Origin: Candidatus Nitrosothermus koennekei
GTDB lineage: Archaea; Thermoproteota; Nitrososphaeria; Nitrososphaerales; Nitrosocaldaceae
Length of the DNA: 64,000 nucleotides
Assembly (NCBI GenBank): GCA_013538715.1
Contig: JACAFH010000002.1
Location: 62,001 to 126,000, forward strand
Reading direction: 5' to 3'
Both the position numbers and the translations under genes were made by a program. Positions 3,953 through 19,153 of this stretch are shown in pieces; positions within the stretch are counted from its first letter, which is position 1, and each line of letters begins with the position of its first letter. The notes under the pieces are model-generated. The model saw nothing but the letters and a program-made list of their open reading frames with translations, was not told the origin of the DNA and made no database searches.

Positions 3953-4526
3953 AAAAGAGTATTATAGAAGAGAAGCGAAGAGAGTAGGATATAGAAGTAG
4001 AGCAGCCTTTAAGCTACTGGAGATAAATAATGTCTTTCACATATTTAATGAAGGTATGTATGTTGTAGATCTAGGTTGTTCTCCAGGAGGATGGTCTCAA
4101 GTAGCCTTGCAGTTTATAGGTAAAGGCAAAATAGTAGGCATTGATATAGAAGATATTAAACCTTTACCAATTGAGTTTATAAATGCAAGTATAGAAGATC
4201 CTTCATTATCTGAGAGAATACTAAATATTTTGGGTAGAAAAGTAGATCTGATACTATCTGATATGGCTCCTAACGTATCTGGTATATGGAGTTTAGATCA
4301 TATAAGGCAAGTAGATCTTGTATATAAAGCAGTAGATTTAGCAGAGAAGATCTTAAGAAGGAGCGGTAATATGGTTGTTAAGGTATTTGAGGGAGAGATG
4401 TTTAATCAACTTCGAGAAGATTTAAGCAAAAGATTTAAAGATGTCATTATATTTAAACCAAAAGCTAGTAGGAAAGAAAGTAGTGAACTCTATCTTATAT
4501 GTAAAGGATTTAAGCAAGTATCTTAA
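3933..4526 (+). CDS. rlmE: 23S rRNA (uridine-2'-O-)-methyltransferase, RlmE/FtsJ family
   Basis: The 197-residue protein is a Rossmann-fold SAM-dependent 2'-O-methyltransferase. The SAM site is VVDLGCSPGGWSQ (44-56). The K-D-K-E catalytic tetrad of the FtsJ family is visible as K27 (AAFK), D110 (LILSDMAPN), K150 (VVKVFEG) and E185 (SSELYLI). Bacterial RlmE methylates U2552 of 23S rRNA; the archaeal counterpart is expected to act on the same A-loop region. The ATG at 3933 lies inside the 3' end of the upstream gene. The 3' end overlaps the convergent trm1 gene by 17 bases. Confidence 0.9.
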   Translation: MRPTEAKKEYYRREAKRVGYRSRAAFKLLEINNVFHIFNEGMYVVDLGCSPGGWSQVALQFIGKGKIVGIDIEDIKPLPIEFINASIEDPSLSERILNILGRKVDLILSDMAPNVSGIWSLDHIRQVDLVYKAVDLAEKILRRSGNMVVKVFEGEMFNQLREDLSKRFKDVIIFKPKASRKESSELYLICKGFKQVS

Positions 4527-5607
4527 GAATAGTATTGTAATCAGCATCACTCTTGAATCCATTAAGCATTAGACTCGTTCTTGATGCTTTGAATCCATTA
4601 CTTTTTAATCTATATACGATCTGCTCAAGTTTGATTGGAGTAATTCGTAACCTCTTTGAGATCTCATCTATCGTATAATATGATATTACATCTAACTCAT
4701 CTTCTGCAATGCTTAACACCTTCATACATCTTTTATCCAAAGTCTCATCATAAGCATTCTTCATCTTATTCACGAATTCCTTATCAAATATCTCTCCAAT
4801 CCATAAAGGACCAACCCTGTTCATATCCTTCATGCAATTAGTGCATGTCTTATCAAGGCCTCTATTATTACATTTGAAACAATGATATACACACTTTAAA
4901 TTATCTAACATTGAATCTGCACCTTTTCTGCTAACTATAATCTTAGCATATACTCTAAGATGGTTTCTAATTGCATGTACAAATAATGGTTTTATTGCTA
5001 ATTCTAGCCTTGCTGCTGTAAATGCTAGTAATCCTAACATCAATCTTAAACCTATCTCATTACTATACTCACTTCTCAAAGATAATCCATAATATCTCCT
5101 TAATGCTATTCTTGGATAAAGTCCTTGTAGCACTGGTGTATCCGTTGCTGTTATACATATCATACCTCCATCTTTTACTGCTCTGATCGCATTATCTATA
5201 TAATATACTGGAGTACCAAATGGATCTATTTCTACTATTGACACTCTTTCACTCTCTACAAGCAACCTATTTGCTGGGCATATACTAAATTTACAATTTA
5301 ATATATCATTTATCTTACTTATCTCTTTTGCTATCTCTATAGCTTGAGGATTTATATCATTTATATATGCATATCTAATATTTTCTGCCTCTTTTACTGC
5401 TCTTAAGCCTCGTGCCCCTATCCCTGCTAATGCATCAATAATCTCTGCCTTATCTTGATATGCTCTATATGCTAATACTGCCATATCTCTACTCATTCTT
5501 GCTTTTGGATTAAAGAATGCTGGATCTTTTGGTGGAGTATTAGAATTTAGAGAATCTTTTGGTATTAGTAATTTAGTCTTGCCTTCAACTATCTCTATAA
5601 GGTTCAT
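4510..5607 (-). CDS. trm1: tRNA (guanine(26)-N2)-dimethyltransferase Trm1
   Basis: The 365-residue enzyme dimethylates G26 of tRNA using SAM. The N-terminal domain has the Trm1 entry motif (PPKDPAFFNPKARMSRD), the SAM site (IIDALAGIGARGLRA) and the catalytic-region motif EIDPFGTP. A C-terminal zinc-binding segment carries CxxC...CxxC (CFKC and CTNC). It is the usual archaeal length. The gene is transcribed away from the GC-rich RNA island at 5646-5790, which lies just upstream of its ATG. Confidence 0.93.
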   Translation of the reverse strand: MNLIEIVEGKTKLLIPKDSLNSNTPPKDPAFFNPKARMSRDMAVLAYRAYQDKAEIIDALAGIGARGLRAVKEAENIRYAYINDINPQAIEIAKEISKINDILNCKFSICPANRLLVESERVSIVEIDPFGTPVYYIDNAIRAVKDGGMICITATDTPVLQGLYPRIALRRYYGLSLRSEYSNEIGLRLMLGLLAFTAARLELAIKPLFVHAIRNHLRVYAKIIVSRKGADSMLDNLKCVYHCFKCNNRGLDKTCTNCMKDMNRVGPLWIGEIFDKEFVNKMKNAYDETLDKRCMKVLSIAEDELDVISYYTIDEISKRLRITPIKLEQIVYRLKSNGFKASRTSLMLNGFKSDADYNTILKILA

Positions 5608-5645
5608 TCTTAAAAATTATACTATTATTATTGATATAAACTATG

Positions 5646-5790
5646 TTCCCCGCCTCTGACCCACAAGGAATCATTGCGTGCATAGCACATACTCCTCCCG
5701 CACTCTCCCACGGGGAGCCTACTGTAGCACGGCTGGGTGAAACTATGAATCATTATTCATCACAGTCCGTCTGCGTGCATTTTTGTAGGC
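5646..5790. ncRNA. Unidentified structured RNA with two hairpin domains
   Basis: This roughly 145-base stretch is far more GC-rich than its surroundings, as are the tRNA genes here, and it lacks a plausible protein. It folds into two adjacent domains. Domain I is closed by 5646-5652 pairing with 5711-5717 (TTCCCCG with CGGGGAG, one G-U) and contains a small hairpin 5678-5681/5685-5688. Domain II is closed by 5717-5722/5785-5790 (GCCTAC with GTAGGC), then 5727-5731/5774-5778 (GCACG with CGTGC), with an apical hairpin 5745-5750/5755-5760. The pairing works on either strand, so the transcribed strand is not settled. It does not show the conserved RNase P core or the SRP S-domain motif, and it is shorter than either RNA. 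It sits between the trm1 and ksgA genes. Confidence 0.6.
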
Positions 5791-5839
5791 TGATCTTAAT
5801 AATAATAAACTCTTTATTAAAATTATGATATATTAATCT

Positions 5840-6529
5840 CTAATTATTACTCGTGTTTAAGTGTAATATTGAGATAATCTCTTCCTCATTAAGCTCTTCA
5901 ACTCTTTTATCTGATATGGTATGATCAATTACAAGCATATGTGAAGCATGTTTAATCTTTCTTCCTTTAAATGAGTATAATAATTTTATAGTTTTGATCT
6001 CATCATCTGTAAGTGTATTCCTCTTCCTTAACCTTATAAGAGCTGAATCTACATGAGGAATAGGTTTGAAAGCATCTCTACTAACATCAATTATATGCTC
6101 TATTGTAAAGCAGTGTCTTGCTATGAATGATATTGCTTTATTTTCATATAATATCTTCTCAAAGAAATCTTTCTGAACCATTATTACTGCTAACTCGAAT
6201 TCTTTCTTTGCTAATAACTCTATTGTATCTCTGCTTTTATAATATGGTATATTTGATACAAATTTATCAAAATTTACAATATAAGCATATCTATATCCAT
6301 CTACATTATATAGTTCAAGGTTGTTGTATGATAAAGATCTTGCTTCTTGATACATCTTCTTATCTATCTCACATGAGATCACATATCCCGCTCTTTCGCA
6401 TAGCTCTCTTGTAAGGATACCAGTCCCACTTCCTATCTCAAATACTATATCATCCTTATCTAGTTCAGCAGATTTTATTATTCTCTCTATGATATGCTTA
6501 TCCAAAAGTATATTCTGACCTAGCCTCAT
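5840..6529 (-). CDS. ksgA: 16S rRNA adenine dimethyltransferase KsgA/RsmA (Dim1)
   Basis: The 229-residue enzyme dimethylates two adjacent adenines near the 3' end of 16S rRNA. It opens with RLGQNILLD, the family's N-terminal signature, which fixes the start. The SAM site is VFEIGSGTGILT, the acidic residue follows in CEID, and the catalytic N6-adenine motif is NIPY. The substrate-side signature FKPIPHVDSAL is also present. It is shorter than typical family members (about 260-280 residues), mainly in the C-terminal domain. The start overlaps the DUF655 gene stop (ATGA), and the DUF655-rpo4-L21e order upstream is a common archaeal arrangement. Confidence 0.92.
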   Translation of the reverse strand: MRLGQNILLDKHIIERIIKSAELDKDDIVFEIGSGTGILTRELCERAGYVISCEIDKKMYQEARSLSYNNLELYNVDGYRYAYIVNFDKFVSNIPYYKSRDTIELLAKKEFELAVIMVQKDFFEKILYENKAISFIARHCFTIEHIIDVSRDAFKPIPHVDSALIRLRKRNTLTDDEIKTIKLLYSFKGRKIKHASHMLVIDHTISDKRVEELNEEEIISILHLNTSNN

Positions 6530-18651: not shown

Positions 18652-18736
18652 GGCCTCCATAGTATAGTGGTAGTATAAAGGGCTGTGGAACAATTGCAGT
18701 GACCCTTGGGCTGGGGTTCGATTCCCCATGGAGGCC
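18652..18736 (+). tRNA. tRNA-His (GTG) with a 13-base intron
   Basis: Acceptor GCCTCCA/TGGAGGC pairs fully, with a G at -1 (18652) opposite the C73 at 18736, the mark of tRNA-His. The anticodon stem AAGGG/CCCTT brackets CTGTGG and, after an insertion of 13 bases, the final A; the loop is therefore CTGTGGA with anticodon GTG and an intron at the usual 37/38 site. The T-arm is TGGGG-TTCGATT-CCCCA. An A/T-rich TATA box (near 18613-18625) precedes it. The gene is GC-rich. Confidence 0.93.
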
Positions 18737-19153
18737 TTTCACAAAAATGCAACTATAGTTAGAAACTAAGTTGTATAATTAGCACATTTACATGAGAGAT
18801 AAATATTTAACTATAGTATATAATATTATAGCTTAATTATAATTCATCTACTAAAATCTAATATAATAGGTTTATATATAATTTATAATATCATTTTATT
18901 TTATATTCTCTAGCTTTTTAAGTGTCTTATCTGCATATATAACTTTTACCCCATTAGTTTTATATCGCTTATCGAGTTTAATATTATTGCTAGTTAAAAA
19001 CTCATGTATCGAAGATAACTGTTTTAAACAAGGGCAAGAAACGAAACTATGATGTCAACATTACAGTATTTATTGATTCAAACTTTATTTGTAATCTAGA
19101 ACAATTTGAAACAGGTTATGTATTAGCCATAAGTATTTAAGCATACATGTTTT
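18737..19153. other. Intergenic region with possible gene remnant
   Basis: Between tRNA-His and the glycosyltransferase gene lies 417 bases without an intact gene. On the minus strand about 51 codons are open (stop near 18895, from about 19055), giving a plausible-looking lysine-rich tail that includes SCPCLKQLSSIHEFL, but no start codon. On the plus strand 18999-19140 is also open without a start. One of these may be a decayed gene; nothing firm can be claimed. Confidence 0.3.

What the first reader, a model, noticed from the sequence alone, without database searches (positions are those of the whole stretch)
5646..5790. Unidentified GC-rich two-domain structured RNA between trm1 and ksgA
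A GC island in A/T-rich DNA, comparable to the tRNA genes, folds into two consecutive hairpin domains with a 7-bp closing helix (5646-5652/5711-5717) and an imperfect long arm (5717-5722/5785-5790 and 5727-5731/5774-5778). The sequence is not the RNase P core, SRP RNA, 5S or a tRNA. On the minus strand a base ACA follows directly after the domain I stem (5645-5643), as in H/ACA guides, but the arm lengths fit poorly. It may be a new small RNA of these archaea, or a very divergent known one.
Basis: partly seen in the sequence, partly recalled or inferred. Interest (0 to 1): 0.7.

Follow-up and report, generated by a model that had tools for sequence, protein, structure and literature searches.

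The report
Two-hairpin archaeal pseudouridine guide RNA
Between two genes of an ammonia-oxidising archaeon lies a small RNA gene, on the minus strand, whose two hairpins match two key spots of the organism's own ribosomal RNA and very probably direct a known enzyme to modify them; it occurs across its whole archaeal class, yet RNA databases miss it.

Summary
On the minus strand, 5791-5644 is a two-hairpin H/ACA pseudouridylation guide RNA, a divergent counterpart of Pab40/HgcG (Pf7) and of haloarchaeal HP1/HP2. Rfam HgcG matches it full length but far below cut-off (17.6 against 77 bits; 27.9 bits, E 3e-6, in a sister genome). My covariance models find hairpin B in 231 and hairpin A in 195 of 300 genomes of the class, and hairpin A also in about 39 genomes of other classes. 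Helices covary strongly (0/500 shuffles). G.U pairs, kink-turn motifs and a TATA-like box fix the strand. Hairpin A's invariant guide words (GACGG, ACCCA) match the peptidyl-transferase loop around E. coli U2586; hairpin B's conserved GUCAGA, exactly 14 nt before ACA, matches helix 69 and points to U1921. Cbf5 and Nop10 are encoded in the genome. New features: an outer covarying helix that encloses the ACA box of hairpin A, and a guide aimed a few bases away from the sites known for its euryarchaeal relatives. The neighbours trm1 and ksgA are incidental. Transcript and pseudouridines were not observed.

The parts
5644..5791 (-). whole bipartite H/ACA guide RNA (about 148 nt; ends inferred)
   Evidence: full-length RF00064 match; one match each to models R1 and R2 in the whole genome
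5785..5791 (-). outer clamp helix, 5' strand AGCCUAC
   Evidence: pairs with 5722-5716; species-specific complementarity in 43 loci, mean score 19.3 own vs 12.6 cross-species, 0/2000 permutations
5716..5722 (-). outer clamp helix, 3' strand GUAGGCU, directly after the ACA of hairpin A
5723..5778 (-). hairpin A (5' H/ACA unit): lower stem 5778-5774/5731-5727, GA stem 5766-5757/5751-5742
   Evidence: pair counts (93.9% paired vs 73.6% shuffled; covariation 0.625 vs 0.234)
5767..5771 (-). hairpin A 5' guide GACGG (ACGG in all 43 loci by the search pattern; preceding G in most)
   Evidence: complementary to LSU CCGUC, E. coli 2590-2594
5732..5741 (-). hairpin A 3' guide UUCACCCAGC
   Evidence: complementary to LSU GCUGGGU, E. 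coli 2578-2584; positions -16 U and -15 U/C conserved
5723..5725 (-). ACA box of hairpin A
   Evidence: sequence; ACA in nearly all relatives (ATA allowed by the search)
5644..5715 (-). hairpin B (3' H/ACA unit): lower stem 5715-5711/5652-5648, upper stem 5701-5696/5669-5663, G-A pairs 5694-5693 with 5672-5671
   Evidence: pair counts (95.3% paired vs 73.7% shuffled; covariation 0.557 vs 0.151); model R1 match 71.5 bits
5702..5709 (-). hairpin B 5' pocket strand GGGAGAGU
   Evidence: pairs with helix 69 at E. coli 1919-1926 (Psi1917 register); parts can pair with 1923-1926 (Psi1921 register)
5654..5660 (-). hairpin B 3' guide GUCAGAG, 14 to 8 nt before ACA
   Evidence: conserved in 58 sequences; perfect complement of LSU CUCUGAC, E. 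coli 1914-1920
5644..5646 (-). ACA box of hairpin B
   Evidence: ACA in 57 of 58 sequences
5814..5821 (-). TATA-like box TTTAATAA, 30-23 nt before the clamp
   Evidence: best TATA-like site lies at -35..-25 in 23 of 43 relatives against 8.5 expected, maximum 15 in 300 shuffles

Best explanation
The locus encodes, on the minus strand, a two-hairpin H/ACA small guide RNA. Each hairpin would be bound by L7Ae at its kink-turn or K-loop and by Cbf5-Nop10-Gar1 at its ACA box (inferred from the known class). Hairpin A opens its pocket to the peptidyl-transferase loop of 23S rRNA (CUGGGUU[UA]GACCGUC) and most likely directs pseudouridylation of E. coli-numbered U2586, the haloarchaeal Psi2621 site. 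Hairpin B binds helix 69 with its 3' guide GUCAGAG and most likely directs pseudouridylation of U1921 (CUCUGAC[UC]UCUU); in this family its 5' strand can also bind in the U1917 register. An outer helix encloses hairpin A outside its ACA box. Shown here: sequence, conservation, covariation, strand, complementarity, presence of Cbf5 and Nop10. Inferred: transcription, RNP assembly, the modified bases.
For: Full-length minus-strand match to HgcG. Hairpin B in 231/300 and hairpin A in 195/300 class genomes, mostly one copy and adjacent; hairpin A in about 39 genomes of other classes. Covariation far above shuffles and slid controls. About a quarter of paired cells in hairpin A are G.U, which would be A.C mismatches on the plus strand. 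ACA and spacing conserved, matching the 14-16 nt rule and 10-layer GA stem of PMC4652768. Guide words match rRNA better than shuffled rRNA: A 0-1/300, B class words 0/300, window B registers 2-5/300. Target strings identical in all intact LSU genes of the class examined. Cbf5 404.6 bits and Nop10 74.1 bits in the same genome. TATA-like boxes about 30 nt upstream. Literature: Pf7/Pab40 stems and Haloferax HP1/HP2 guide Psi2621, Psi1956 and Psi1958 (PMC2584109, PMC4652768).
Against: No transcript or modification data. The pocket of hairpin A is atypical: five target bases (UUAGA) lie between the two guide duplexes instead of two. The 5' guide of hairpin B is short (4-5 bp for U1921; a run of at least 4 in 49/58 sequences against 28.6 by chance) and degenerate in a few lineages. 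The closing pair of hairpin B is ambiguous (14-16 nt from ACA), so U1917 and U1921 both remain open. RF00064 score is far below its gathering cut-off. L7Ae and Gar1 were not searched. Alignments A4 and A5 were fitted to the model structure, which favours it.
Confidence: 0.87

Rival explanations
1. A structured RNA on the plus strand (a new small RNA unrelated to H/ACA).
For: The plus strand also folds (-44.2 kcal/mol, z -1.9).
Against: Conserved G.U pairs exist only on the minus strand; TATA-like box, ACA spacing and kink-turn motifs are on the minus strand; HgcG matches the minus strand only.
Confidence: 0.02
2. A cis-regulatory leader of trm1 or a terminator/attenuator of ksgA.
For: It lies between the two genes and in their orientation.
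Against: Relatives carry the same RNA beside unrelated genes; in Nitrososphaeraceae hairpin B stands alone; its own TATA-like box.
Confidence: 0.03
3. An H/ACA guide RNA whose hairpin B mainly serves U1917 (and U1915), as in Haloferax, not U1921.
For: In the window GGGAGAGU pairs over 8-9 bp with 1919-1927 and GGGU with 1913-1916, leaving exactly U1917-G1918 unpaired; Haloferax HP2 guides these sites (PMC2584109).
Against: Across the class GAGAGU and GGGU are not conserved, GUCAGA is; only 20 of 58 sequences allow the long 5' pairing; spacing to ACA would be 16 nt.
Confidence: 0.3
4. A conserved RNA that binds 23S rRNA for folding or processing rather than modification.
For: The hairpin A pocket is atypical, as expected if no UN has to be presented.
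Against: ACA boxes and canonical spacing are invariant, which folding chaperoning does not need; haloarchaeal relatives modify the same loop (PMC2584109).
Confidence: 0.08

Closest known systems
Pab40 / HgcG / Pf7 H/ACA sRNA of Thermococcales (Rfam RF00064)
   Same: Several H/ACA hairpins in one RNA, kink-turn motifs, ACA boxes, one unit aimed at helix 69; full-length weak homology.
   Different: Two hairpins here instead of three; 3' guide of the last hairpin is GUCAGAG, not GUUAC (helix 69 U1915); far below the Rfam cut-off; outer clamp around hairpin A.
Haloferax volcanii HP1/HP2 (Hvo1/Hvo2, recalled as sR-h45)
   Same: Two hairpins in the same order; the first aimed at the same peptidyl-transferase loop (Psi2621 = E. 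coli 2586), the second at helix 69 (PMC2584109, PMC4652768).
   Different: Hvo1 is described as a canonical 10/5/9 fold, hairpin A here is not; Hvo2 serves Psi1956/1958 (E. coli 1915/1917), hairpin B here best fits 1921; long spacer in haloarchaea.
Eukaryotic snR3 / snR191 H/ACA snoRNAs of helix 69
   Same: Guide pseudouridines of helix 69; yeast Psi2264 (snR3) is at the E. coli 1921 position (PMC8307265; numbering mapped by me).
   Different: No homology tested; different RNA architecture.

Membership tests
archaeal H/ACA guide RNA | hairpin with internal pocket, lower stem and 3' ANA box | tested here: met
   both hairpins; ACA conserved; stems covary
archaeal H/ACA guide RNA | K-turn or K-loop G-A pairs about 10 layers above the pocket | tested here: met
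   counted on the sequence: A 5766-5757/5742-5751, B 5702-5693/5662-5672 with one bulge; UGA conserved
archaeal H/ACA guide RNA | 14-16 nt between the pocket-closing pair and ACA | tested here: met
   B 14-16, A 15-16 nt depending on the closing pair; conserved words at fixed distance
archaeal H/ACA guide RNA | pocket strands complementary to rRNA around an unpaired UN | tested here: met
   B: CUCUGAC[UC]UCUU, 0/300 shuffles for class words; A: complementary but with UUAGA between the duplexes
archaeal H/ACA guide RNA | Cbf5, Nop10, Gar1, L7Ae in the genome | tested here: inconclusive
   Cbf5 and Nop10 found; Gar1 and L7Ae not searched
archaeal H/ACA guide RNA | transcript and pseudouridine at the target | not testable with these tools
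   needs RNA-seq and pseudouridine mapping
Rfam RF00064 HgcG | score at or above the gathering cut-off (77 bits) | tested here: not met
   17.6 bits in the window, 27.9 bits in G006; no relative over the cut-off
Rfam RF00064 HgcG | three H/ACA hairpins | tested here: not met
   middle 79 model positions replaced by 4 nt
haloarchaeal HP1/HP2 guide | first hairpin aimed at Psi2621 (E. coli 2586) | tested here: met
   guide words match this loop only
haloarchaeal HP1/HP2 guide | second hairpin aimed at Psi1956/1958 (E. coli 1915/1917) | tested here: inconclusive
   1917 register possible in this family, class-wide conservation favours 1921

The most novel reading that the evidence does not exclude
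A variant H/ACA design: hairpin A sits in a sealed outer helix that encloses its ACA box, and its pocket swaps strands on target binding (GG.UU pairs open so that GACGG takes CCGUC and UU takes GA, bulging U2586-A2587). Hairpin B has been re-aimed within helix 69, from U1915/1917 in euryarchaea to U1921, a site so far tied to eukaryotic snR3, with a double register in some families.
Probability: 0.4. Interest if true: 0.65.

Novelty: new variant of a known kind. Interest (0 to 1): 0.52.

Why it matters
I found no described pseudouridine guide RNA for the ammonia-oxidising archaea; here is one present across nearly the whole class and beyond, missed by Rfam, with precise, testable target predictions in the two functional centres of the ribosome. 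It links the euryarchaeal Pab40/HP1-HP2 guides to another archaeal phylum, suggesting an old guide whose target drifted within helix 69, and it poses a structural question: how Cbf5 binds an ACA box enclosed by an outer helix.

Tried and rejected
Rfam at gathering threshold found only tRNAs in the window. Single-sequence folding gave no clear verdict. The first target scan used the rRNA loci in the wrong orientation and was discarded, then repeated. The key papers on P. abyssi H/ACA RNAs, on H. volcanii pseudouridines and on sR-h45 are not held; their content is cited through PMC2584109 and PMC4652768 or marked as recalled. Searches for a described guide of this kind in Thaumarchaeota found nothing, but most subscription journals are not in the library. 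Synteny with trm1/ksgA was rejected as irrelevant. U1923 as hairpin B target was rejected: 8 bp on the 3' side but no 5' guide. An idea that G011's degenerate 5' guide reflects the rRNA intron in helix 69 was dropped: G007 has such an intron with an intact guide. Guide-target co-change: outgroup families f36, f48 and f31 have GAUGGGU in the rRNA; f36 guides read ACCCAU to match, those of f48 and f31 do not, so this is only weak support.

Full report
Setting. The window lies in a Nitrosocaldaceae genome: its same-family relatives share contigs with Candidatus Nitrosocaldus schleperae, N. tengchongensis and Archaeon HR04. The candidate sits between ksgA (5840-6529, minus) and trm1 (4510-5607, minus), in a GC island of 57% against 22-41% around it.

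Observation. Folding energy is only mildly better than shuffled sequence on both strands (z about -2), so energy alone would not carry the claim.

Identity. No Rfam family reaches its cut-off at this place. A permissive search gives a full-length minus-strand match to RF00064 HgcG (Pab40), 17.6 bits, E 0.0039, with the middle hairpin missing. A same-family genome scores 27.9 bits, E 3.4e-6. DNA homologues exist in other families of the order. An exact 20-base pattern from the 3' end (TTGTGGGTCAGANNCGGGGNACA) finds 30 places in 257 Gb of named genomes, all in Thaumarchaeota/Nitrososphaeria except one MAG labelled only 'bacterium'.

Anatomy (RNA sense = minus strand). An outer clamp AGCCUAC/GUAGGCU (5791-5785/5722-5716) encloses hairpin A with its ACA (5725-5723). 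Hairpin B follows directly (5715-5644) and ends in ACA (5646-5644). Both have a lower stem, a pocket, a stem of ten layers up to tandem G-A pairs, and a kink-turn or K-loop. These are the features of archaeal H/ACA motifs listed in PMC4652768.

Conservation and covariation. In narrow alignments, hairpin B has 95.2% standard pairs (shuffled 85.0) and hairpin A 97.9% (91.7), with covariation scores no shuffle reached. Class-wide, hairpin A has 93.9% against 73.6% and score 0.625 against 0.234; hairpin B 95.3% against 73.7% and 0.557 against 0.151. Those class-wide alignments were fitted to the model, but slid controls collapse. The clamp was tested without alignment: the flanks of the same locus pair far better than flanks of different species (19.3 against 12.6, 0/2000 permutations, 43 loci). 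Whole-genome searches find hairpin B in 231 and hairpin A in 195 of 300 class genomes, mostly single copy and adjacent. Nitrososphaeraceae keep only hairpin B among those listed. A class-wide model of hairpin A also rings in about 39 genomes of other classes of the phylum; in many of these a second hairpin follows in which a GUUA-type 3' guide can be read by eye.

Strand and expression. Many helix positions are G.U on the minus strand and would be mismatches on the plus strand. A TATA-like box lies about 30 nt before the clamp in the window and in 23 of 43 relatives against 8.5 expected. No transcript data were available.

Targets. Target strings are identical in all intact LSU genes examined in the class; two genera carry an insertion, probably an intron, in helix 69. 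Hairpin A: GACGG and ACCCAG match LSU 2664-2665 of this genome better than any other site of either rRNA and than 299 of 300 shuffled rRNAs. The matched loop, CUGGGU-UUAGA-CCGUC, contains E. coli U2585 and U2586; U2586 is the haloarchaeal Psi2621 site guided by HP1 (PMC2584109). The bases at -16 (U) and -15 (U or C) from ACA are conserved and could pair with A2589 and G2588, leaving U2586-A2587 as the unpaired UN; this strand-switch model is my inference. Hairpin B: across 58 sequences, GUCAGA is conserved exactly 14 to 9 nt before ACA; 27 of these were found by a pattern that contains it, but the other 31 were found through the model. It is the perfect complement of helix 69 and leaves U1921 at the canonical place, with RRGA on the 5' side pairing UCUU in 49 of 58 (chance 28.6). 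In the window and its family the 5' strand GGGAGAGU also pairs with 1919-1926 and would present U1917. I weigh U1921 at about 0.65 and U1917 at about 0.3. E. coli numbers were mapped by me from the sequence of helix 69 and the peptidyl-transferase loop.

Machinery. Cbf5 (404.6 bits) and Nop10 (74.1 bits) are encoded in this genome. L7Ae and Gar1 were not searched.

Comparison. In Pyrococcus, Pab40 guides Psi2588 and Psi2016, the latter in helix 69 (PMC6138745, PMC4652768, PMC2584109). The Rfam consensus of its last hairpin has GUUAC 14 nt before ACA, which pairs with GUAAC before U1915. In Haloferax, HP1 and HP2 guide Psi2621 and Psi1956/1958. The window RNA has the same order of units and the same first target, but a different 3' guide in the second unit. 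Yeast modifies the U1921 equivalent (25S 2264, snR3; PMC8307265). So this is a new variant of a known kind, not a new class.

Limits. Everything about function is inferred from sequence. The related sequences are not independent. The shuffle tests treat guide words chosen after seeing conservation and after a first target scan, so their counts are descriptive rather than strict probabilities.

Noticed in passing
L056 (G011) and L064 (G007), LSU rRNA; also L212, L213: The LSU genes of G011 and G007 are about 800 bases longer than others and carry an insertion in helix 69 after GACUCUC (E. coli about 1924/1925), probably an intron; L212 and L213 of other classes look alike.
   Followed up: partly
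L011, L026, L027, L045, L046 and other Nitrososphaeraceae loci: Nitrososphaeraceae carry hairpin B alone; hairpin A gave no match in any of those listed, predicting loss of its pseudouridine there.
   Followed up: partly
L012 and L144: The 5' guide strand of hairpin B is degenerate (AAAAAAA, AAAAAG) although the 3' guide is intact.
   Followed up: no
window 18652-18737: ARAGORN calls a tRNA with an unresolved four-base anticodon (gtgg); perhaps a variant or intron-bearing tRNA.
   Followed up: no
L131, L133, L134, L136: The hairpin B model also matches hairpin A weakly in some Nitrosopumilaceae, which suggests that the two units may be old duplicates.
   Followed up: no
G233 contigs C70 and C75: This genome has two copies of the pair of hairpins, unlike nearly all others.
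   Followed up: no
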